29,400 bases of DNA from positions 1 through 29,400 of the IMG/VR virus record IMGVR_UViG_3300049846_002340; one strand, 5' to 3'. The stretch comes from a virus. This document shows, piece by piece, positions 1,783 through 17,933 of the stretch. The notes beneath the pieces are model-generated. The model did no database searches. It saw only the letters and a program-made list of their open reading frames with translations, and was not told where the DNA came from. The translations under genes were made by a program, and so were the position numbers. Each line of letters starts with the position of its first letter. Position 1 is the first letter of the stretch.

Positions 1783-2090
1783 TGGGAAAGCCCAAGTCTT
1801 GTCGTACATTCATCATAGAGTGGAAGTATGAGAACCTTGAGAAAGGAATAGAAAAGATAGAGCTAGAAGAATATAAGGTGAAGAGACTTAAGAACTCTGA
1901 CGCTGAAGTTCAGCTAGCTCTACTTTATGTTCTTTCTAAATATAAAAAAGACAAACAGCCTAGATGGCAGGGGTACTTTATTGCTAACCATGCCTTTATA
2001 TGGGATAAACCTATGAAGTTTATGTACTGCCATGCCTCCCTTGAAGATTTCATTGAGTCAGGAGTTAGGGCTGATAGGGTAGAGATTTAG
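1782..2090 (+). CDS. Hypothetical protein (102 aa)
   Basis: The start overlaps the upstream stop (TAATG). The N-terminal half is highly charged (EKGIEKIELEEYKVKRLK) and the C-terminal half is richer in aromatic residues. No known family is recognised. It is the last gene before the RNA-rich tract. Confidence 0.65.
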   Translation: MGKPKSCRTFIIEWKYENLEKGIEKIELEEYKVKRLKNSDAEVQLALLYVLSKYKKDKQPRWQGYFIANHAFIWDKPMKFMYCHASLEDFIESGVRADRVEI

Positions 2091-2099
2091 GTACTTAAA

Positions 2100-2211
2100 G
2101 TCTTTACCCTCAAGGCTCGCCTCACAGTACTCTATCCTCAAGGACGCTACGCTAGCGGGGGACGCAAGAATCTTTGCATCCTAATGTGAGGCTAGTGCGG
2201 GTAAGCCTTGA
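2100..2211 (+). ncRNA. Structured non-coding segment, extended hairpin
   Basis: There is no open frame here. TCAAGGCT (2110-2117) pairs with AGCCTTGA (2204-2211), and CCTCACA (2120-2126) pairs with TGTGAGG (2185-2191), giving two stacked long-range stems. Inside, GCAAG and TTTGC form a small 4-nt-loop hairpin near 2164-2177. A GCTACGCTA copy (2144-2161) lies within. Such nested complementarity over about 100 nt suggests a folded RNA of unknown class. No database model could be tested. Confidence 0.5.
2144..2161 (+). repeat. ACGCTACGCTAGCGGGGG repeat, copy 3
   Basis: A full copy of the dispersed element including its G-run. It lies in the non-coding tract rather than directly before a protein gene. 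If the element helps start transcription, this copy could serve the tRNA/ncRNA cluster. Confidence 0.6.
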
Positions 2212-2443
2212 CTGCACAGAGAATAAGGTATCGGAAACTCTTAAGCCGTTACCGATGGTTGCTGTCCCTAGAGCAGAAAACAGCAGGTATGTTGAAACCT
2301 AGTATCAATCTAAACCTATTGTAGGAGGATTGGCGGACTAAACAAACAACTACGGCAGCTATGGGCCGAGAAGTACATTAGCTAGGGATTACACGCAATG
2401 CAAAGGCATCAGTTCCCCGATATAATTAACTGAGCCTTAGCAA
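2212..2443 (+). other. Non-coding stretch before the tRNAs, several hairpins
   Basis: No credible coding frame. GGTATCGG (2227-2234) pairs with CCGTTACC (2246-2253) with one mismatch, and GCTG (2261-2264) can pair with CAGC (2281-2284). The rest (2285-2443) holds short complementary pieces but no confident fold. It may be the continuation of the structured RNA at 2100-2211 or the leader of the tRNA transcript. Confidence 0.35.
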
Positions 2444-2522
2444 AGATGAGTAGCTCAGTGGGCAGAGCGCGTGCCGTAGAAATACGTCTAGTAGGACATG
2501 GGTTCAAATCCCATCTCATCTA
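2444..2522 (+). tRNA. Aberrant tRNA, isotype undetermined
   Basis: The acceptor stem AGATGAG (2444-2450) pairs with CTCATCT (2515-2521). The D arm is canonical (GCTC, AGTGGGCA, GAGC), and so is the T arm (ATGGG TTCAAAT CCCAT). The anticodon region is not normal: 28 nt instead of about 22 separate the D and T arms. They contain a perfect CGTA-GAAA-TACG hairpin with a GNRA loop, and no loop with U33. The closest reading of a 7-nt loop (2475-2481) would give anticodon UAG but lacks U33 and has a C-A closing mismatch. CCA is not encoded. It could be a decayed tRNA, a class II-like tRNA or a tRNA mimic. Confidence 0.6.
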
Positions 2523-2525
2523 TAG

Positions 2526-2612
2526 GGGAACATGGTGACTATTGGTAAGTGTCACGCTGGTCTGTAAAACCAGAACATTGAACCGTTGCTAGTTCGATTC
2601 TAGCTGTTCCCA
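2526..2612 (+). tRNA. tRNA-Tyr (anticodon GTA)
   Basis: A complete bacterial-type cloverleaf. Acceptor GGGAACA (2526-2532) pairs with TGTTCCC (2605-2611). The D stem is GTGAC/GTCAC, the anticodon stem CTGGT/ACCAG encloses loop CTGTAAA with anticodon GTA, and the long class II variable arm is typical of bacterial tRNA-Tyr. The T arm is GCTAG TTCGATT CTAGC and the discriminator is A. CCA is not encoded. It starts 3 nt after the aberrant tRNA, so both probably come from one transcript. It would read both Tyr codons. Confidence 0.93.
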
Positions 2613-2643
2613 CTATAATTAAACGAATATCGAAGGTACTAAT

Positions 2644-2778
2644 ATGCTAGAAAGTTTTATCATTGCCATTGTCCTTAACTCAGCAGAGTGTAGGGCTAAT
2701 GAAGTAGAAGTGCGTACTCCTTATGGGGAGATATGTCTTACCAAAGAACAAGCTAAAAGATTGAGGAGTCGAAAGTAA
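2644..2778 (+). CDS. Small hypothetical protein (44 aa)
   Basis: ATG 2644 gives MLESFIIAIVLNSAECRANE and then a basic C-terminus ending KRLRSRK. The N-terminal hydrophobic stretch (FIIAIVL) is short for a membrane span; a small secreted or membrane-associated peptide is possible. The stop TAA (2776-2778) shares a base with the next ATG, which supports it being a real coupled gene. Confidence 0.5.
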   Translation: MLESFIIAIVLNSAECRANEVEVRTPYGEICLTKEQAKRLRSRK

Positions 2779-2939
2779 TGAACTTAATGTCTCTTCTTGA
2801 ATCTCGCATTAAGGCTTTAGACGTACTAATTAAGATACATTCTTCTGAAACTGGAGATTATCTTGTTATGGAACGAGCAGTATGCACTATCCAGCTTGAC
2901 ATTTTAAAACAAGAAGCAAGGGATACTAACAATGGATAA
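2778..2939 (+). CDS. Small hypothetical helical protein (53 aa)
   Basis: The start at 2778 overlaps the upstream stop; an internal ATG at 2787 is an alternative. The product (MNLMSLLESRIKALDVLIK then VMERAVCTIQLDILKQEAR) reads as two amphipathic helices. No family is recognised. Its end overlaps a possible 21-residue frame. Confidence 0.5.
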   Translation: MNLMSLLESRIKALDVLIKIHSSETGDYLVMERAVCTIQLDILKQEARDTNNG

Positions 2940-2997
2940 TGAAGATGACGATACTATCCCATCACTACCCCCTTGTCCTTATCCACCAGCTACATAA
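2932..2997 (+). CDS. Possible 21-residue acidic/proline peptide
   Basis: ATG 2932 overlaps the end of the preceding gene and opens a peptide that starts with an acidic run (DNEDDD) and ends Pro-rich. The overlap fits the phage's packing style, but at this length chance is a serious alternative. Confidence 0.25.
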   Translation: MDNEDDDTIPSLPPCPYPPAT

Positions 2998-3003
2998 ACG
3001 TAC

Positions 3004-3150
3004 AGTGTCGGTCGGCATGAAAAACATATCTCTTTAATATTCTAGTACTGCCTAGACAATACACATCCGAGGTGAGCTTAATAACTTGCTTGTTGAACTA
3101 CTGGCATCAGAAAGCAATAAGTTAATATCAAGCAGAGATGGTTCGACACT
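3004..3150 (+). ncRNA. Structured non-coding domain closed by a 7-bp stem
   Basis: No open frame is credible here. AGTGTCG (3004-3010) is exactly complementary to CGACACT (3144-3150), closing a ~147-nt domain. Inside, TCTAG (3041-3045) pairs with CTAGA (3052-3056). Around 3083-3124 AACT-TGCTT pairs with AAGCA-AGTT around a 3-nt bulge. The 3' closing arm is preceded by GGTTCG, as in tRNA T arms, but no T stem forms. RNA class unknown. Confidence 0.4.
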
Positions 3151-3284
3151 TTACATTACACAGGATACTTAGGAAATACCCAATACCTAAGAAGTGGGTT
3201 CGTTCATGCTAAGCCTACCCGTAACCTAGCTCTGACAGTGCAAACTGTTATCCTAGTGCAATGCGCTAGAGTAGGATGTAATTG
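3151..3284 (+). other. Non-coding stretch with several small hairpins
   Basis: No gene seen. CTTAGG and CCTAAG pair near 3168-3191. ACAGT-GCAA-ACTGT near 3236-3248 is a perfect stem with a tetraloop. ATCCTA and TAGGAT pair near 3250-3276 around an inner CTAG palindrome. The density of perfect stems suggests this is part of the same folded RNA as its neighbours. Confidence 0.35.
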
Positions 3285-3340
3285 TTGAAAAGGTTTGCGT
3301 ACCCTCAATTGATTACCTGAGAAGGATTGCGTTCCCTCAG
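3285..3340 (+). ncRNA. Tandem pair of 24-nt hairpins with compensatory changes
   Basis: Two 24-nt units (3285-3308 and 3317-3340) share 19 of 24 bases and the same fold: outer stem, purine bulge, inner GG/CC stem and an identical TTGCGT loop. Four of the five differences form two covarying base pairs: T-A versus C-G at the outer end, and T-A versus A-T in the inner stem. The fifth turns an A/C mismatch into a G-C pair. That is direct evidence that the RNA fold, not the sequence, is maintained. Confidence 0.6.
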
Positions 3341-3365
3341 ATAGGACATGGCTATCCTGTGATTA

Positions 3366-3547
3366 GAGAGAGTGGCGAAATTGGCAAACGTATTGGCTGC
3401 GGCGTAAAGGTGATTGAACCCGTCCCATAGTAGATGTATGACTCTAGGCAGGCAGAGAAGTAGGTTGTTTACTTGCCCCTGTATCTACTTTTATACATAC
3501 ATCTTTGATTGGAAGTCCGCTTGAAGGTTCGAGTCCTTCCTCTCTCA
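3366..3547 (+). tRNA. tRNA-like gene (Leu-type arms) with ~95 extra nt
   Basis: Acceptor GAGAGAG (3366-3372) pairs perfectly with CTCTCTC (3540-3546). A D arm of tRNA-Leu type follows (TG, GCG, loop AAATTGGCAAA, CGT). The 3' part has a plausible short variable arm (AAG-TCCG-CTT) and a perfect T arm (GAAGG TTCGAGT CCTTC). The whole is 182 nt where about 87 is normal. No anticodon stem-loop can be found. In its place lies a segment with a 9-bp hairpin (3432-3440 with 3496-3504) and an alternative 7-bp pairing (3429-3435 with 3483-3489). TGATTG is repeated at 3411 and 3506, 95 nt apart, which would match an insertion or excised intron. It could be an intron-containing tRNA, a disrupted tRNA, or an RNA that mimics tRNA ends. 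Confidence 0.5.
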
Positions 3548-3555
3548 TTTCATGC

Positions 3556-3561
3556 TATAAT
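3556..3561 (+). promoter_or_regulatory. Possible -10 box TATAAT
   Basis: A consensus TATAAT lies 50 nt upstream of ATG 3611, just after the tRNA-like gene. No good -35 box is visible at 17 nt, so this is tentative. It overlaps the 5' arm of the inverted repeat that encloses the start codon. Confidence 0.35.
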
Positions 3562-3612
3562 CTATTCATTACTAATGACTCTCTAAAGAGTAAAGGAAAC
3601 TGAATAGATTAT
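3557..3612 (+). promoter_or_regulatory. 11-bp inverted repeat enclosing a leader and start codon
   Basis: ATAATCTATTC (3557-3567) is an exact reverse complement of GAATAGATTAT (3602-3612), whose last two bases are the first two of ATG 3611. Inside is a smaller ACTCT-CTAA-AGAGT hairpin followed by AAAGGAA. Folding would sequester the start codon. It is the third case in this window of a perfect 11-bp stem at a start codon. Confidence 0.6.
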
Positions 3613-4531
3613 GGCTACAACTAAGCCTAAAAAGAAAGCTGAGACTAAATCTAAGCTTACAAGCAGTGCTAGATTCTACCCTACCAAGTGGGGATTCAAT
3701 GCACCTAGCGTTACCACCATCTTAAGTGGAACAGAGTCTAGAGCAGCACAAACTAGACTAGAGAACTGGTCTGAGAAGTGGTTAGCTGATCCAGGGAATG
3801 AGGGTAAGACTGAACCAAAAGATAGGGGTTCATTAATTGATGAACGCTTATCTAAGTATTTTGCCTTAGACCCAGAGTGTCGTGTATTACCTACTGCTTG
3901 GGGATTGCCAGAGGATGTAAAGCCATTTATGGAAGCAATACTTAAGCCTATCCCTAAGACAGGTAAGTCTATCCTTGCTCAAATAACTGATGTGATGTGG
4001 AGCCAAGGGTTGTTGGATTGCGTTGATATCCCTAGGGAAGAGAGACAGTTCTACCAACCAGACATTAAGATTGCTAGGGAGCAAGAGTTCATCTCATCTA
4101 AGACTCATCGCTATGCTGGTGTCCCCGATTTTGTGGGGAACTATACTAATTCTAAGGGTGAGACCAAGTTAAGCCTTATTTCTCTTAAAACCTCTGACAA
4201 GAAGTACTCAAAGGTTAGCCCTGATTGGAATAAGTTTAATGATGAGAAGAACAGGTGCAGAGCATTAGGCATTGAGTTCAAGCCTCCTGAGAATTGGAGT
4301 ACCAACTATGGGGCCAACATGAAGTTTCGTAGAGCAGGGATGCAAGAGAGTGCTTATGACTTTGCGCTTCAGGAGTCTTTGGGCATTTATGTAGAGCAGT
4401 ACATTGTATTGGTAGTTACAACTAAAGGCATCCAAACTCTATCTATTAGTGGGATGGAGAAAGATTGGTTTAATAAGATGTGGCTAGAGAAGGTTAATAA
4501 GTTCTATGAGATGTATCCTGATTTAGGGTAG
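3611..4531 (+). CDS. PD-(D/E)XK-like phage nuclease, one acidic residue replaced (306 aa)
   Basis: After a Lys-rich N-terminus (residues 1-16), residues 32-38 read PSVTTIL and residues 72-79 RGSLIDER. This order is seen in phage RecB/Cas4-like exonucleases. The core follows: Glu157/Glu159 in a helix, YAGVPDFVG with Asp173, then LISLKTS at 189-195 with Lys193. In the family the residue two before that Lys is Asp or Glu; here it is Ser191. The C-terminal helices contain a QESLGIYVEQY stretch like the Q-x-Y motif of this family. The expected role is DNA end processing in recombination or replication. With Ser191 it may be inactive or use another acidic residue. Confidence 0.6.
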   Translation: MATTKPKKKAETKSKLTSSARFYPTKWGFNAPSVTTILSGTESRAAQTRLENWSEKWLADPGNEGKTEPKDRGSLIDERLSKYFALDPECRVLPTAWGLPEDVKPFMEAILKPIPKTGKSILAQITDVMWSQGLLDCVDIPREERQFYQPDIKIAREQEFISSKTHRYAGVPDFVGNYTNSKGETKLSLISLKTSDKKYSKVSPDWNKFNDEKNRCRALGIEFKPPENWSTNYGANMKFRRAGMQESAYDFALQESLGIYVEQYIVLVVTTKGIQTLSISGMEKDWFNKMWLEKVNKFYEMYPDLG

Positions 4532-4563: not shown

Positions 4564-5019
4564 ATGACACAACTAAATTATCGCTACAGAATCTCGTATC
4601 ACACTGCTGACACAAAGTTGATTACTTTTAAGGGTGAGCTATCTCAAGTATCTCATCTAGGATATGCTGACACAGTAGCAGAAGCGCTAACTCAACTTGC
4701 ATCTATTGTATCTAGAGTTGGAGCTGAAAGTAAGTCGCCTGTCACTTGGCACTCATCTGAGATTGATGAAGTTACAAGTGCTGACCCTTCTGAGCAGTGC
4801 AGTATTATTAATACACTTAAGAAAGCGTCATATCTTTTGCTTTGTGAGAAGGATGAAACACTTGAGCCTAAGACTTTACTTAATGCTTTAGCTAACATCC
4901 AAGAGATTATTCATTGGAGGATGAAAGATTTGAGGGCTAGAGGTTATGAGCCTAAGATTGAAGATAGCTTTAATTTAGGGGATAGAGGACTTCGAGGCAA
5001 GCTTGAGAGCGCATCGTAA
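4564..5019 (+). CDS. Hypothetical protein (151 aa)
   Basis: It starts 32 nt after the nuclease gene on the same strand. Residues 1-60 suggest a small beta-rich domain, and residues ~80-130 read as helices (LKKASYLLL, LLNALANIQEIIHWRMKDL). No motif is recognised. It probably shares a transcript with the nuclease, but that alone says little about its job. Confidence 0.7.
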   Translation: MTQLNYRYRISYHTADTKLITFKGELSQVSHLGYADTVAEALTQLASIVSRVGAESKSPVTWHSSEIDEVTSADPSEQCSIINTLKKASYLLLCEKDETLEPKTLLNALANIQEIIHWRMKDLRARGYEPKIEDSFNLGDRGLRGKLESAS

Positions 5020-5040
5020 GATGTAAGTTCTTTGGATATT

Positions 5041-5066
5041 GCCCTAGTGTTGGATGGAATCGACAC
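5041..5066 (+). other. Hairpin directly before the CRISPR-like repeat
   Basis: GTGTTGG (5047-5053) pairs with TCGACAC (5060-5066), including two G-U pairs, around a 6-nt loop ATGGAA. It touches the CRISPR-repeat-like element on its 3' side. The surrounding bases vaguely resemble a tRNA-Leu D arm, and CCCTA (5042-5046) could also pair with TAGGG inside the repeat. Confidence 0.4.
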
Positions 5067-5103
5067 GCTTCAAAGCCCCTGAAACCCTTTTAGGGATTGA
5101 AAC
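5067..5103 (+). CRISPR. Solitary CRISPR-repeat-like element (37 nt), no array
   Basis: The 37-nt element begins GCTTCAAAGCCCC and ends TTTTAGGGATTGAAAC. It has the length (35-37 nt), the internal CCCT-TTT-AGGG hairpin and the ATTGAAAC 3' end that mark many cyanobacterial CRISPR repeats. In those, the last 8 nt become the 5' handle of crRNA. It occurs once in the window, in a 165-nt gap without a gene. There is no second repeat and no cas gene here. A single repeat in a phage fits the solitary repeat units described as RNA anti-CRISPRs, or a remnant of a one-repeat mini-array. The match is by eye only. Confidence 0.6.
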
Positions 5104-5129
5104 AATAGTTGAGAGACACTTTAACCTCT

Positions 5130-5184
5130 GCTTGTGGCGAAATGGTATTAAGGCGCAGGGCATTTTATTAAACAACATAATGCA
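5130..5184 (+). other. tRNA-Leu-like 5' fragment ending in a start-codon hairpin
   Basis: GTGGCGAAATGGTATTAAGG (from 5135) resembles a tRNA-Leu D arm and is close to the same part of the tRNA-like gene at 3372. No T arm or 3' acceptor follows, so it is at most a 5' fragment. It continues into a hairpin: GCATT (5160-5164) pairs with AATGC (5179-5183), and some inner pairs extend it. The 3' arm ends one base before ATG 5185. Confidence 0.35.
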
Positions 5185-5451
5185 ATGACAAAGGGTGATA
5201 TCGTACAGTTTAAGCCAGCTAAGGTTGTTGTTAAAGGCAGCGATAACTTAGCTCGTATGGTTAAACAGTACGATTCACCCTGTGTTGTCTACCAAGTGAT
5301 AGGTTATTGGGCTTACCTTTATCGGTTAATGGATGGCGGTATTCACGTAGCTCCATGTAGTGAACACTGGTGTTGTGTTGATGTGGACTTAAATAATTAT
5401 GTAGACAAGCTAGATACAATAAAACATTTACTGGAAGCAGGGCAAGAATGA
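5185..5451 (+). CDS. Hypothetical protein (88 aa)
   Basis: The N-terminal MTKGDIVQFKPAKVVV reads like a small SH3-like beta barrel as found in many short phage proteins. Several Cys and Trp residues follow (CSEHWCCVDVD). The stop overlaps the next ATG (ATGA at 5448). No family can be named with confidence. It heads a run of tightly coupled genes. Confidence 0.65.
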   Translation: MTKGDIVQFKPAKVVVKGSDNLARMVKQYDSPCVVYQVIGYWAYLYRLMDGGIHVAPCSEHWCCVDVDLNNYVDKLDTIKHLLEAGQE

Positions 5452-5938: not shown

Positions 5939-6321
5939 TGGGTGAAACCAGAGTTCAATACATCCCTAATATAACAGTACAATCAGGGATTACTACCTAC
6001 CCTAGATATATAGGTGAAATACTACCACATCCTTTTGCCCAAAACACGTTACTAGAAGTACTAGAAGTGTGGGATGGTAGCGAGGAAATATGGGGTAACT
6101 TAAATGAATCTATACCCTTCCCTTATGGTAGTGAGTCTAATCCTATTACTAGAGATTGGAATACTCCACCGCCGCGAAGAGACGAGTCATCTAAGTACCC
6201 TATCTACAAGTGTCGTGTTAATGGGGCTAATGAACAATGGATTATCTTCAAGTGGATACTACTAGATGGCAATCAACCCACTGACTTACTTGGATATTCA
6301 ACTGCTAGGGTTGGAGGTTAG
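5938..6321 (+). CDS. Hypothetical protein (127 aa)
   Basis: The start shares a base with the upstream stop. The product is rich in Pro, Trp and Tyr with little helix potential, suggesting a beta fold (YPRYIGEILPHPFAQ, EQWIIFKWILLDGNQ). No family is recognised. Its last 17 nt overlap the end of the convergent Dps-like gene. Confidence 0.65.
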   Translation: MGETRVQYIPNITVQSGITTYPRYIGEILPHPFAQNTLLEVLEVWDGSEEIWGNLNESIPFPYGSESNPITRDWNTPPPRRDESSKYPIYKCRVNGANEQWIIFKWILLDGNQPTDLLGYSTARVGG

Positions 6322-6808
6322 TCTGTAACTTAGGCTTAGAAGCTTCAAACACTGAAGGCACTTTAATACCCAACTCAGCACGATAGAACCACGCTTGTTG
6401 ATAGTGATATTTCTGGCGTTCAGCTAGGTAGTTAGCAATGTCATTAGCGCCACATTCTTCTGCCGTCTTGAATACACCTTTGATTAACTCACCTAAGATG
6501 TTATGCCCTGAGTAAGCTATGTGTAGTATTTTCTCAGGGTCATCCACCTTGGGTAACTCTTTGATAGATGTGGATAGAGCTAGGTACTCAGACAGTCTAG
6601 TTGGTGGTTCGTAGTTAAGGGTTAATATTTCTTCAGCATAGGTATCAACACTCTCATAGGTATTAGAGTAGTCCTCGCCTAAGAATGGGTGTAAATAGAT
6701 AAAGCCAGCACCAGTGTATGTCCAGTGGAAGCTGTGTAATTGTTGGCTAAAGACAAAGGTGTTGGCTAAGAGGATTGATAGTTGTTGAGCTAGGGTTAGG
6801 GCTGACAT
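6305..6808 (-). CDS. dps: Dps-like ferritin (167 aa)
   Basis: The ferroxidase residues of Dps are present with the exact family spacing: His28, His40 (12 apart), Asp55 (15 further) and Glu59 (4 further), with Trp29 next to the first His. Residues 3-35, 45-65 and 95-150 read as the helices of the four-helix bundle. The length (167) is normal for Dps. These proteins form 12-subunit shells that oxidise and store iron with hydrogen peroxide and often coat DNA. In a phage it may protect DNA or manage iron and peroxide during infection. It lies on the opposite strand to its neighbours and overlaps the upstream convergent gene by 17 nt. No Shine-Dalgarno is seen, and the GCTACGCTA element begins next to its start. 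Confidence 0.85.
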   Translation of the reverse strand: MSALTLAQQLSILLANTFVFSQQLHSFHWTYTGAGFIYLHPFLGEDYSNTYESVDTYAEEILTLNYEPPTRLSEYLALSTSIKELPKVDDPEKILHIAYSGHNILGELIKGVFKTAEECGANDIANYLAERQKYHYQQAWFYRAELGIKVPSVFEASKPKLQTNLQP

Positions 6809-9047: not shown

Positions 9048-9782
9048 ATGCCAAAGATATTTAAAGGATGTGATGTACTAGATGCATCACAATTAAATAC
9101 AGAAGAGTTTCTTCCAAAAGTAGAGAAGACTTCTACCTACTATCCATTTGCTCATGTAGACTTCTATGCTAATGCTAGATATGTGCTTAAGCAGATTGGT
9201 ATTGGTATCGTAACAGAGTCTTTTGGGCTTACCCCTAAGCGTGACCGTATGTTTATGTGGTTGGAGACCGATGCACAAGTAAATGGACTACCACTATGTA
9301 TTGGTGGACGCAACTCATACGATAAGTCCATGAGCGCTGGCTTGTGTGTTGGAACTAAGATACTTGTCTGCTCTAATAAGGTGCTTGCGTCTTATGAGAA
9401 TGGTGGTGTTGTTAGTCGTAAGCATACTAGTGCTGAGAATATAGATGAGTTGAGTAGGGAGTTTAAAGAGCTACTAGATTTTCAAGCTTCAAAAAATGAT
9501 GGCAATATGTTTTATCATTTAAATAGAACAAAAACATCTTATATTGCCAATTCAACAGTTAAATGGAAGCTTGTAGATTTGGTGCTAGCCAACATTATTA
9601 GACCTACAGACATTCCTTTGATTTGGGATGAATATAAAAAACCCAAGCACGATGAGTTCAAGCAATATGATGAAACTGATTATGGATTACTCATGGCTTG
9701 CACAGAAGTATTCAAACTCCACAAAGGCGCTGACTACCAAATCAAAGCTTATGATGGAGTAGCTAAGGCGCTAGGGCTGTAA
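9048..9782 (+). CDS. DUF932-like (phage/plasmid-like) protein (244 aa)
   Basis: I start at ATG 9048 because a longer frame would run back through the upstream gene and the repeat. The segment LPLCIGGRNSYDKSMSAGL, VGTKILVCSNKVL and SRKHT matches the pattern of the DUF932 / phage-plasmid family: hydrophobic strand, N-S-x-D, then a 'C-x-N' strand and an 'R-H-T' site. The biochemical role of that family is not established. The basic C-terminal third is unique here. It lies between an XRE regulator and a MazG-type enzyme. Confidence 0.55.
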   Translation: MPKIFKGCDVLDASQLNTEEFLPKVEKTSTYYPFAHVDFYANARYVLKQIGIGIVTESFGLTPKRDRMFMWLETDAQVNGLPLCIGGRNSYDKSMSAGLCVGTKILVCSNKVLASYENGGVVSRKHTSAENIDELSREFKELLDFQASKNDGNMFYHLNRTKTSYIANSTVKWKLVDLVLANIIRPTDIPLIWDEYKKPKHDEFKQYDETDYGLLMACTEVFKLHKGADYQIKAYDGVAKALGL

Positions 9783-15700: not shown

Positions 15701-17236
15701 TTAAGGGCATGTTGGAGGTGCATTACCACAATTGTCGGGAGCGCCCCCTTGCCTTTCTACTCTAAACGCTGTAAGGACAACAGGTTCTCCGCCAACAGTA
15801 GTGCCAGATATAGTGCCATTGTTCAACCCAGAATTGTAGGTGAACAAAATAGTCCCTCCCGAAATGAATGGCCCACCAATTTTTCCACCGACGAGGTTGC
15901 CAAACTGAACATTTGTCTGCCAAGGAACCCCGCCTTTATTGAGGGAATAAATTACTGCATACAAATCCCCCCCAACACATTGCCCCCCAGTAAATATTGG
16001 TGGGACTAAAGCAGCTAAGCATTCAGCTTCAGTATTGTAAACACCTAAAGCATCAGGGACACAATTACCGCCACTGACGCAAGACCATTTGGTTAGCGAC
16101 GAACACCCTAGATTATTAGGCGGATAAGTTGCAGTACCGCAACAAAGGACAAAAGATCCAGCAGTAGCAAAGTCCACTACGCCTCTAGCGACAGTTCCTG
16201 CGGGACATAGGCTAGTTCCCCCATTTAGGTTCATGTCTACTTGTGCTGACTGGGCGCTAGTGATGGTATGCCAAGTACAGTCTTGAATAGGAGTGCATCC
16301 ACCAGCAGCGGGAGGTGGAACGGGAGGGCTAGGGTTAGAACTAGGCGAAGTAGGAGAGGATGGACTGCTAGGACTAGGCGACCCTGGATTTGAGTCTGGA
16401 CTAGGAGAACTTGTCCCTATATCCGTAGGCGACGTTGGCAATGGAGTAGGAGGTGGTGGGGTTACAGTAAAATCTGCTACCCCCCTCCTCCAAGTAGCAG
16501 AAGCGAAAGTGATAGGTAGTATGAATTGCGTATCTACAGGAGTGTTCGGATTCTCATCAATAAGATCATTGCCATTAGCTACCGTAGACGATCCCCCTAT
16601 AGATGCCGATATTCCACTACCGACTAAGGTATTGGCTTGTAAGTCCCACATCTCAAAGCTACAAGTATAGGGTTGTGGTATTGCCAGTCCTAAATAAAGG
16701 TTCTGCGCTGGAGGGACATATACTCCTGCCTTGACGTTAAAGCTTCTAGGTATATCAGCCCGAGTTAATGCAGGTATAGGTATTTCAGCTAGGAGCGTGT
16801 AGGTGTTACGGATATTAGCTTTGCCAGTGCCATCCTCTCTGTAGTCTTTCTGCCCACCCGCAAAGATACGTAATGTATTGGGAACAAAAGACTGTGGTTC
16901 TACTTGCTCAATGAACTCATCAAGAGCATGGAGTGTAATTGTATCTATCCACTTACCCGCAAAGTCTTGCTGTTCTGTCAGCCTAGGTATTGATTTGGCT
17001 ATGTTTGATAGGTTAGCGCTACTTAGGGATGGGGCTATAGCAGCATCTTGATTAGCAGGAGTGAAAGCATATCCACCACTAGAATCCCCGTACCCCGTTA
17101 GCCTTAAGCTGCCATTACCAAACCTATCGCATTGAGTACCACGTAAGTCATAACCAAGGAAAGAGCGTCCCTGCGGTTGGAAAGGGGTGACAAATTCTTT
17201 AAACCATTGAGATTCCTGTGGAGAAATAGTGGACAT
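15701..17236 (-). CDS. Putative adhesin-like virion protein with Pro/Ser linker and Cys-rich tail (511 aa)
   Basis: Residues 1-255 form a beta-rich domain that begins like a structural protein (SQWFKEFVTPFQPQGRSFLG). Residues ~258-312 are an extended linker of Pro, Ser and Thr. The C-terminal ~195 residues contain many cysteines, including the unit WSCVSGGNCVPDALGVYNTE followed by AEC. That pattern (W-x-C ... N-x-C-V ... G-x-Y-x-T-x-x-x-C) resembles small disulfide repeats in viral surface proteins. This suggests a tail or head adhesin exposed outside the cell. No enzymatic motif is seen. Its start lies in the short divergent gap with the HNH gene. Confidence 0.6.
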   Translation of the reverse strand: MSTISPQESQWFKEFVTPFQPQGRSFLGYDLRGTQCDRFGNGSLRLTGYGDSSGGYAFTPANQDAAIAPSLSSANLSNIAKSIPRLTEQQDFAGKWIDTITLHALDEFIEQVEPQSFVPNTLRIFAGGQKDYREDGTGKANIRNTYTLLAEIPIPALTRADIPRSFNVKAGVYVPPAQNLYLGLAIPQPYTCSFEMWDLQANTLVGSGISASIGGSSTVANGNDLIDENPNTPVDTQFILPITFASATWRRGVADFTVTPPPPTPLPTSPTDIGTSSPSPDSNPGSPSPSSPSSPTSPSSNPSPPVPPPAAGGCTPIQDCTWHTITSAQSAQVDMNLNGGTSLCPAGTVARGVVDFATAGSFVLCCGTATYPPNNLGCSSLTKWSCVSGGNCVPDALGVYNTEAECLAALVPPIFTGGQCVGGDLYAVIYSLNKGGVPWQTNVQFGNLVGGKIGGPFISGGTILFTYNSGLNNGTISGTTVGGEPVVLTAFRVERQGGAPDNCGNAPPTCP

Positions 17237-17237
17237 G

Positions 17238-17252
17238 GCGCTACGCTACGGG
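17238..17252 (+). repeat. GCGCTACGCTACGGG repeat, copy 9
   Basis: It starts 2 nt beyond the start codon of the minus-strand gene and 25 nt before the HNH gene start at 17277. Confidence 0.65.
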
Positions 17253-17276
17253 ACAAATATTATTAATAACTTAATT

Positions 17277-17933
17277 ATGGCTTATCAAGGTAGAGTAAAA
17301 GCAGGAGATTTGTATGGCAGCCTATATGTCATCACAGTCTTTACTGAAAGGATTAAAGGCAAGGTAAGGGCTAAAGCGCTGTGCTGGTGTAGGGACTGGT
17401 TAACTTATGCCATCTTTCACACAGATGCTCTTATTCAAGGGTTAGCTTTTTCTGGCAGGAATTGTATAGGAAGGGCTTTGCCTGAAGGATGTATTGTTGA
17501 TGAAAATCTATCTGATACTTTAAGAGCTTATTTCTGGAAACTTGATGGGAGGTACTATCGGGCAAAAGAAGGTAAGCTACATCGCATTATCTATGAAATG
17601 GTTTCAGGCCAGCCTATCCCTGAAGACAAAGTGGTTGACCACATTAACGGAGATAGGTTTGATAATAGGTTTGCCAATTTGCGTTTAGTAAACAAAAGGC
17701 AGAATTGTTTAAACATCAAATCCCTTTCAAAAAAAGTTGATGCCCCTAGAGGAGTCCATTACTGTCAGAACAATAAAGCTTGGATAGCACAATATTCTTT
17801 CTATGGCGGTATCCGTATTGGGCAGTACGACACCAAAGAAGAAGCCCATAAAGCATGGCTAAACTATGTTACGTTAAATCATCCTGAAGACATCCCGTAT
17901 TTACGAGAGGGTATAAGTAGCGGTGCTGAATGA
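17277..17933 (+). CDS. HNH-AP2 homing-type endonuclease (218 aa)
   Basis: Counting from the upstream in-frame GTG 17229, residues 117-160 hold the HNH core (LHRIIYEMVSG, VVDHINGDRFDNRFANLRLV, N-x-x-N). It has the paired Asp-His of the HNH_3 type (Asp137-His138), Asn140 and Asn150. An AP2 DNA-binding domain follows (GVHYCQNNKAWIAQYSF ... AHKAWL). I start at ATG 17277 because the dispersed element would otherwise fall inside the coding region. Enzymes of this type are free-standing homing endonucleases that spread with phage recombination. It lies on the opposite strand between two virion genes and overlaps the tail-spike gene end by 33 nt. Confidence 0.85.
   Translation: MAYQGRVKAGDLYGSLYVITVFTERIKGKVRAKALCWCRDWLTYAIFHTDALIQGLAFSGRNCIGRALPEGCIVDENLSDTLRAYFWKLDGRYYRAKEGKLHRIIYEMVSGQPIPEDKVVDHINGDRFDNRFANLRLVNKRQNCLNIKSLSKKVDAPRGVHYCQNNKAWIAQYSFYGGIRIGQYDTKEEAHKAWLNYVTLNHPEDIPYLREGISSGAE

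What the first reader, a model, noticed from the sequence alone, without database searches (positions are those of the whole stretch)
5067..5103. Solitary cyanobacterial-type CRISPR repeat in a phage: candidate RNA anti-CRISPR
A single 37-nt element in a gene-free gap has the length, the internal CCCT/AGGG hairpin and the ATTGAAAC 3' end of cyanobacterial CRISPR repeats. No second repeat and no cas gene is present in the window. Solitary repeat units in phages are known to act as RNA anti-CRISPRs (Racrs) by loading host Cas proteins with useless guides. A 7-bp hairpin touches it upstream. If real, this would be a cyanophage Racr, or a one-repeat mini-array whose flank targets a competitor.
Basis: partly seen in the sequence, partly recalled or inferred. 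Interest (0 to 1): 0.8.

Follow-up and report, generated by a model that had tools for sequence, protein, structure and literature searches.

The report
Phage decoy of host CRISPR repeat
A virus of the cyanobacterium Pseudanabaena carries one lone copy of its host's own CRISPR repeat, most likely made into a small decoy RNA that ties up the host's immune proteins; that is a known trick, but here it appears, as far as I could find, for the first time with good evidence against the type I-D system of a cyanobacterium.

Summary
Window 5067-5103 matches, at exactly 37 nt, 36/37 bases of the CRISPR repeat of several Pseudanabaena genomes (arrays of up to ~465 copies per genome), beside type I-D cas genes. 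It is solitary, intergenic, and no cas gene was found. Seven related phage contigs that cover this region all carry one to three such elements, at other sites. In six the full copies are 37/37 identical to the repeat of one Pseudanabaenaceae genome, G023. Hosts of this family hold spacers against the phage clade, one in an array with the mimicked repeat and with a type I-D PAM (GTA). So host, cognate system and conflict are linked by sequence. Most likely function: an RNA anti-CRISPR (Racr), a decoy for Cas6 (confidence 0.7; no expression or inhibition data). A further point: Cas6, Cas4-Cas1-Cas2 and the repeat are nearly constant among these hosts while the effectors differ (divergent I-D lineages, one I-B), so a repeat decoy could act across effector types. 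Guide, regulatory-RNA and relic readings are less likely but not excluded. Corrections: host is Pseudanabaena, not Nostocales; no tRNA; no promoter found at the window copy. New member of a known kind.

The parts
5067..5103 (+). Solitary CRISPR repeat unit (Racr candidate), 37 nt
   Evidence: 36/37 to the CRISPR repeat of Pseudanabaena sp. SR411, ULC187bin1, CAN_BIN31 and others; 65.9 bits
5077..5095 (+). Stem-loop of the repeat (arms 5077-5084 and 5088-5095); the one difference from the host (T12 to C, position 5078) turns a U.G pair into C-G
   Evidence: Pair probabilities, and 13/13 pairs kept in all seven repeat variants; energy -10.7 against -7.7 kcal/mol
5096..5103 (+). ATTGAAAC, the expected 8-nt crRNA 5' handle; Cas6 cut predicted between 5095 and 5096
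   Evidence: Sequence; type I-D repeats leave 8-nt and 29-nt handles (PMC10212523)
5047..5066 (+). Small hairpin abutting the repeat, role unknown
   Evidence: Fold; present in the fold of the gap
5104..5143 (+). 3' flank that would be the 'guide' if the unit were processed as a crRNA
   Evidence: No significant match in host loci or other held phages; first 23 nt absent from the rest of IMG/VR
3611..4531 (+). Phage exonuclease gene upstream; contains the region (4385-4419) matched by a G026 host spacer
   Evidence: phrog_298; spacer match 31/35, flanked by repeats
4564..5019 (+). Orphan gene directly upstream (151 aa), same strand; the segment is absent from relatives
   Evidence: No family, no relative in IMG/VR, gap in synteny
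5185..5451 (+). Downstream gene, conserved in the clade (78-81%)
6408..6452 (+). Region matched by a spacer of Pseudanabaenaceae genome G023 (40/45; 41/45 in relatives, 39/41 over part in G045)

Best explanation
The element is a phage-borne solitary copy of the host CRISPR repeat acting as an RNA anti-CRISPR. Proposed steps: (1) it is transcribed with the early genes on the same strand (inferred); (2) the host Cas6 binds the repeat stem and cuts before ATTGAAAC (inferred from the 36/37 match and known I-D processing); (3) the upstream product stays on Cas6 and may nucleate a Cas7 filament without a 5' handle, as shown for RacrIF1, while the downstream product carries a 5' handle with a meaningless guide (inferred by analogy); (4) Cas proteins are drawn away from phage-targeting crRNAs and the phage escapes (inferred). 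Because Cas6 and the repeat are nearly constant in these hosts while effectors differ, the decoy should work against several effector variants.
For: 36/37 over exactly the repeat unit, with arrays in many Pseudanabaena genomes. Cognate arrays lie beside Cas6-Cas4-Cas1-Cas2 with I-D effectors in eight genomes and I-B in one. In relatives the full copies are 37/37 identical to the 103-copy array of G023, whose genome also holds a spacer against this clade. A spacer in a PCC 7429 array with the mimicked repeat matches phage G039 at 46/48 with a GTA PAM. All seven relatives that cover the region carry one to three hairpin+handle elements at different sites. The variable positions among host and phage copies keep every stem pair. 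Intergenic, solitary, 97% identity and 65.9 bits, above the SRUFinder limits in PMC10651486.
Against: No sigma-70-like promoter found upstream on the + strand nor before the two relative sites scanned; no expression data. The downstream product could in principle serve as a real guide. No known acr gene beside it. The exact window variant (C at position 12) was found in no held host genome. G045 keeps only the hairpin and handle, not the full repeat.
Confidence: 0.7

Rival explanations
1. Neutral relic or recombination footprint: a host repeat picked up by chance (template switching or illegitimate recombination) with no function.
For: A polymorphic 48-nt insertion (37-nt repeat plus 11-nt direct duplication) in otherwise identical contigs shows that such units come or go readily. 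No promoter at the window site.
Against: Repeated presence at unrelated sites in every clade member covering the region; near-perfect sequence including the 5' half; all changes keep the stem.
Confidence: 0.13
2. One-repeat mini-array: the 3' flank acts as a guide against a competing virus or a host gene, using the host's Cascade.
For: Type I-D crRNAs are trimmed in the natural host (PMC10212523), so a second repeat may not be needed. Cyanophage N-1 carries a true I-D-like array that is transcribed (PMC4916379).
Against: The flank matches no held phage or host locus, and its first 23 nt are absent from the viral collection. No second repeat.
Confidence: 0.08
3. CRISPR-derived regulatory RNA: the processed unit guides host Cascade to repress the cas operon or another host gene.
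For: Pseudanabaena genomes carry their own degenerate, promoter-led two-repeat unit next to I-D cas3', so such RNAs may exist in the host.
Against: The phage 3' flank shows no match of more than 12 nt in the fetched host cas loci.
Confidence: 0.06
4. Chance, decayed tRNA or assembly chimera.
For: Only a single record has this exact site.
Against: E 1e-14; no tRNA; the variant is in no held host genome; both flanking regions are syntenic phage genes; several relatives carry the same kind of unit in separate assemblies.
Confidence: 0.02

Closest known systems
RNA anti-CRISPRs (Racrs) / solitary repeat units, RacrIF1 and others (PMC10651486)
   Same: Single intergenic phage copy of the host's repeat, near-identical, stem kept, no cas genes, cognate host system.
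   Different: Cognate to cyanobacterial type I-D (and one I-B) modules; the functional tests named in that paper's discussion are I-C, I-E, I-F and V-A. No promoter found at the window copy. Relatives carry several units at scattered sites, one beside a tRNA-like sequence.
CRISPR array of cyanophage N-1 (PMC4916379)
   Same: Cyanophage-borne, 37-nt repeats of the I-D-like DR5 family, near an exonuclease gene, no cas genes.
   Different: N-1 has five repeats, four spacers and a leader; here there is one repeat and no spacer.
AcrID1 of SIRV3
   Same: Would also inhibit type I-D.
   Different: A protein that binds Cas10d in an archaeal system; described in 2023 as the only known I-D anti-CRISPR (PMC10212523).
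Viral CRISPR mini-arrays (PMC11656645)
   Same: Repeats identical to the host's, no cas genes.
   Different: They carry one or two spacers, mostly against related viruses; none found here.

Membership tests
Solitary repeat unit (SRU, criteria of SRUFinder) | At least 90% identity and 90% coverage to a known CRISPR repeat, score of at least 41.1 bits | tested here: met
   97.3%, 37/37 covered, 65.9 bits (SRUFinder itself was not run)
Solitary repeat unit (SRU, criteria of SRUFinder) | Intergenic, no further repeat within 100 bp | tested here: met
   Gap 5020-5184; only gapped, low-scoring local alignments in the flanks and no other repeat in the window
Racr | Host carries the cognate CRISPR-Cas system | tested here: met
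   Pseudanabaena arrays plus cas genes; host link by spacers in G023, G026 and PCC 7429. Firm for the clade; for the window itself the spacer matches are 89%
Racr | Repeat stem kept (needed for Cas6 binding) | tested here: met
   13/13 pairs; stem stronger than the host's
Racr | Promoter within 250 bp upstream | tested here: inconclusive
   No sigma-70 consensus on the + strand; a selection criterion for tested candidates in PMC10651486, not an absolute requirement; read-through is possible
Racr | Expressed small RNA bound by Cas6/Cas7; inhibition of immunity | not testable with these tools
   Needs RNA-seq, pull-down and infection assays
CRISPR mini-array | At least two repeats and a spacer with a target | tested here: not met
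   One repeat; flank without a target
tRNA (decayed) | tRNA fold or Rfam match | tested here: not met

The most novel reading that the evidence does not exclude
The decoy is effector-agnostic: it mimics the one part (repeat plus Cas6) that these hosts keep while swapping type I-D and I-B effector modules, so one RNA blocks several CRISPR subtypes that no single effector-directed protein inhibitor would. Phages also gain and lose the 37-nt units as discrete cassettes, seen as an insertion polymorphism with an 11-nt duplication.
Probability: 0.3. Interest if true: 0.8.

Novelty: new member of a known kind. Interest (0 to 1): 0.62.

Why it matters
[quoted passage not shown] the only I-D inhibitor named in a 2023 review is an archaeal virus protein. 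Here phage, host repeat, cognate cas operon and phage-matching spacers are joined by sequence, so the test is direct. The contrast between a constant Cas6/repeat and swapped effectors offers a reason why a phage would use an RNA decoy rather than a protein.

Tried and rejected
tRNA or known RNA family at the site: none. Similar DNA in deposited phages: no match. Exact 37-mer in 84,980 genomes: none. The first protospacer search with 799 spacers from the fetched arrays hit nothing convincing in the phage DNA then held; the later genome-wide search and wider phage set did. The 3' flank as guide: none. Second motif of the tRNA-adjacent site (CCCCTATTAGGGATTGAAAC) as a repeat of Pseudanabaenaceae: none. 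Repeat-like pair of unrelated phages L006/L010 in 390 genomes of the class: none. Integrase, for a recombination-site reading: none in six clade records. Hits to the 5' half alone in L116-L122 are chance. G040 (40.8 kb) lacks the element, but in the 40 kb read its homology to the window stops near 9048, so it does not cover the site. Whether these units are already listed in the supplementary SRU tables of PMC10651486 could not be checked.

Full report
What is there. Window 5067-5103 reads GCTTCAAAGCCCCTGAAACCCTTTTAGGGATTGAAAC. It lies in a 165-nt gap between an orphan gene (4564-5019) and a conserved clade gene (5185-5451), all on the + strand. The window is a whole IMG/VR virus record of 29.4 kb; relatives of up to 44.8 kb suggest that it is a fragment.

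Is it a CRISPR repeat? The 3' 22-mer was searched in 84,980 genomes. The hits are cyanobacterial, and the large arrays are in Pseudanabaena and one strain labelled Phormidium tenue. The repeat of Pseudanabaena sp. SR411, ULC187bin1, CAN_BIN31 and the uncultured PMM_0003 is 36/37 identical over exactly 37 nt; other strains differ at two or three positions. One genome holds about 465 copies. The single difference (host T12, phage C) changes a U.G stem pair into C-G and lowers the predicted energy from -7.7 to -10.7 kcal/mol. The four positions that vary among host and phage copies either lie outside the stem or keep it paired.

Which immune system? In P. biceps O153 the array is next to Cas3', Cas10d/Csc3, Csc2, Csc1, Cas6, Cas4, Cas1d and Cas2, that is, type I-D. 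Of nine genomes in which I could read the effector genes, eight are I-D, in several divergent lineages. One, G023, has Cas8b-Cas7b-Cas5b-Cas3 (type I-B) joined to the same Cas6-Cas4-Cas1-Cas2. Cas6 (79-90% identical to O153) and Cas1 (88-96%) are far more alike than the effectors (Csc3 down to about 25-27%). The repeat and its Cas6 are thus the shared target across swapped effectors.

Relatives. Seven contigs share the exonuclease gene and the downstream gene. All carry hairpin+handle elements. In six of them (and in a short fragment, L002) full 37-nt copies GATTCAAAGCCTCTAAAACCCTTTTAGGGATTGAAAC occur at one or two sites whose flanks are unrelated to each other and to the window site. That sequence is identical, 37/37, to all 103 repeats of the G023 array. 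G045 keeps only the CCCT-loop-AGGG hairpin plus ATTGAAAC at two further sites. One site lies just behind a tRNA-Leu-like sequence that ARAGORN does not call as a tRNA. There two otherwise identical contigs differ by 48 nt: the repeat plus an 11-nt direct duplication, TCATCTATAAG. This is an insertion, or a slippage deletion between the direct repeats; the direction is not known.

Is Pseudanabaena really the host? Yes for the clade, by spacers. G023 has a spacer of 45 nt, between repeats of another array, matching window 6408-6452 at 89% and relatives at up to 95% over 41 nt. G026 has a spacer matching 4385-4419 (31/35; 31/32 over part of it in relatives). P. biceps PCC 7429 has a spacer inside an array with the mimicked repeat that matches phage G039 at 46/48, preceded by GTA, which fits the GTN/GTH PAM of type I-D (PMC10212523). 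The effector genes of that PCC 7429 array were not in the piece read.

How it most likely works. By analogy with RacrIF1 (PMC10651486): transcribed with neighbouring early genes, bound and cut by host Cas6, the product retained and useless, Cas proteins depleted. Transcription, binding and inhibition are all inferred. In type I-D the crRNA has 8-nt and 29-nt repeat-derived handles and is further trimmed in the natural host, so the downstream piece could also occupy Cas5d/Cas10d with a nonsense guide; this is speculation. No sigma-70 promoter was found at the window site or before two relative sites, in contrast to the promoter-like site in front of a two-repeat element in an unrelated phage, L010.

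Alternatives. A guide function has no target in what could be searched. A regulatory function is possible in principle, since the hosts carry a degenerate promoter-led two-repeat unit beside cas3', but the phage flank does not match the host cas loci read. A neutral relic cannot be excluded for the window copy alone; recurrence across the clade argues against it.

Novelty. Solitary repeats as RNA anti-CRISPRs are known and were surveyed in IMG/VR3, so the unit is a new member of a known kind; it may even be in those supplementary tables, which I could not open. New here, as far as I could find, are the I-D cyanophage case with host, cognate system and spacers joined, the recurrence at scattered sites within one phage clade, and the constant-Cas6/swapped-effector setting.

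Noticed in passing
L033:2420-2600 (- strand); lone repeats also in L026, L030, L053: Pseudanabaena genomes carry a degenerate two-repeat unit, led by a TATAAT-like box, antisense just behind I-D cas3'; possibly a CRISPR-derived regulator of the cas operon.
   Followed up: partly
L004:14380-14490 against L008:5760-5840: Polymorphic 48-nt insertion (37-nt CRISPR repeat plus 11-nt direct duplication TCATCTATAAG) behind a tRNA-Leu-like sequence in otherwise identical phage contigs; mechanism and direction unknown.
   Followed up: partly
L010:1490-1630 and L006:10920-11060: Unrelated viral contigs with a promoter-like site directly before two degenerate repeats spaced 67 nt apart; no matching repeat found in 390 genomes of the class.
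   Followed up: partly
L086 and L077 (contig IMGVR_UViG_3300045999_009121): Two divergent elements that keep only the CCCT/AGGG hairpin and ATTGAAAC handle; their 5' halves match no Pseudanabaena repeat seen here, so they may mimic another Cas6 target.
   Followed up: no
L113:265-11783 and L124, L129, L055, L042: One repeat/Cas6/Cas4-Cas1-Cas2 module joined to different effector modules (several I-D lineages and one I-B) in Pseudanabaena: effector swapping at a constant adaptation and processing module.
   Followed up: partly
window 6305-6808 (-): Ferritin/Dps-like gene in the phage, matched by a host spacer.
   Followed up: no
window 17229-17933 (+): HNH endonuclease with a weak AP2 match among structural genes on the other strand, probably a homing endonuclease.
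   Followed up: no
window 2444-2613 (+): tRNA-Leu and tRNA-Tyr genes in a long region without clear ORFs (about 2090-3610).
   Followed up: no
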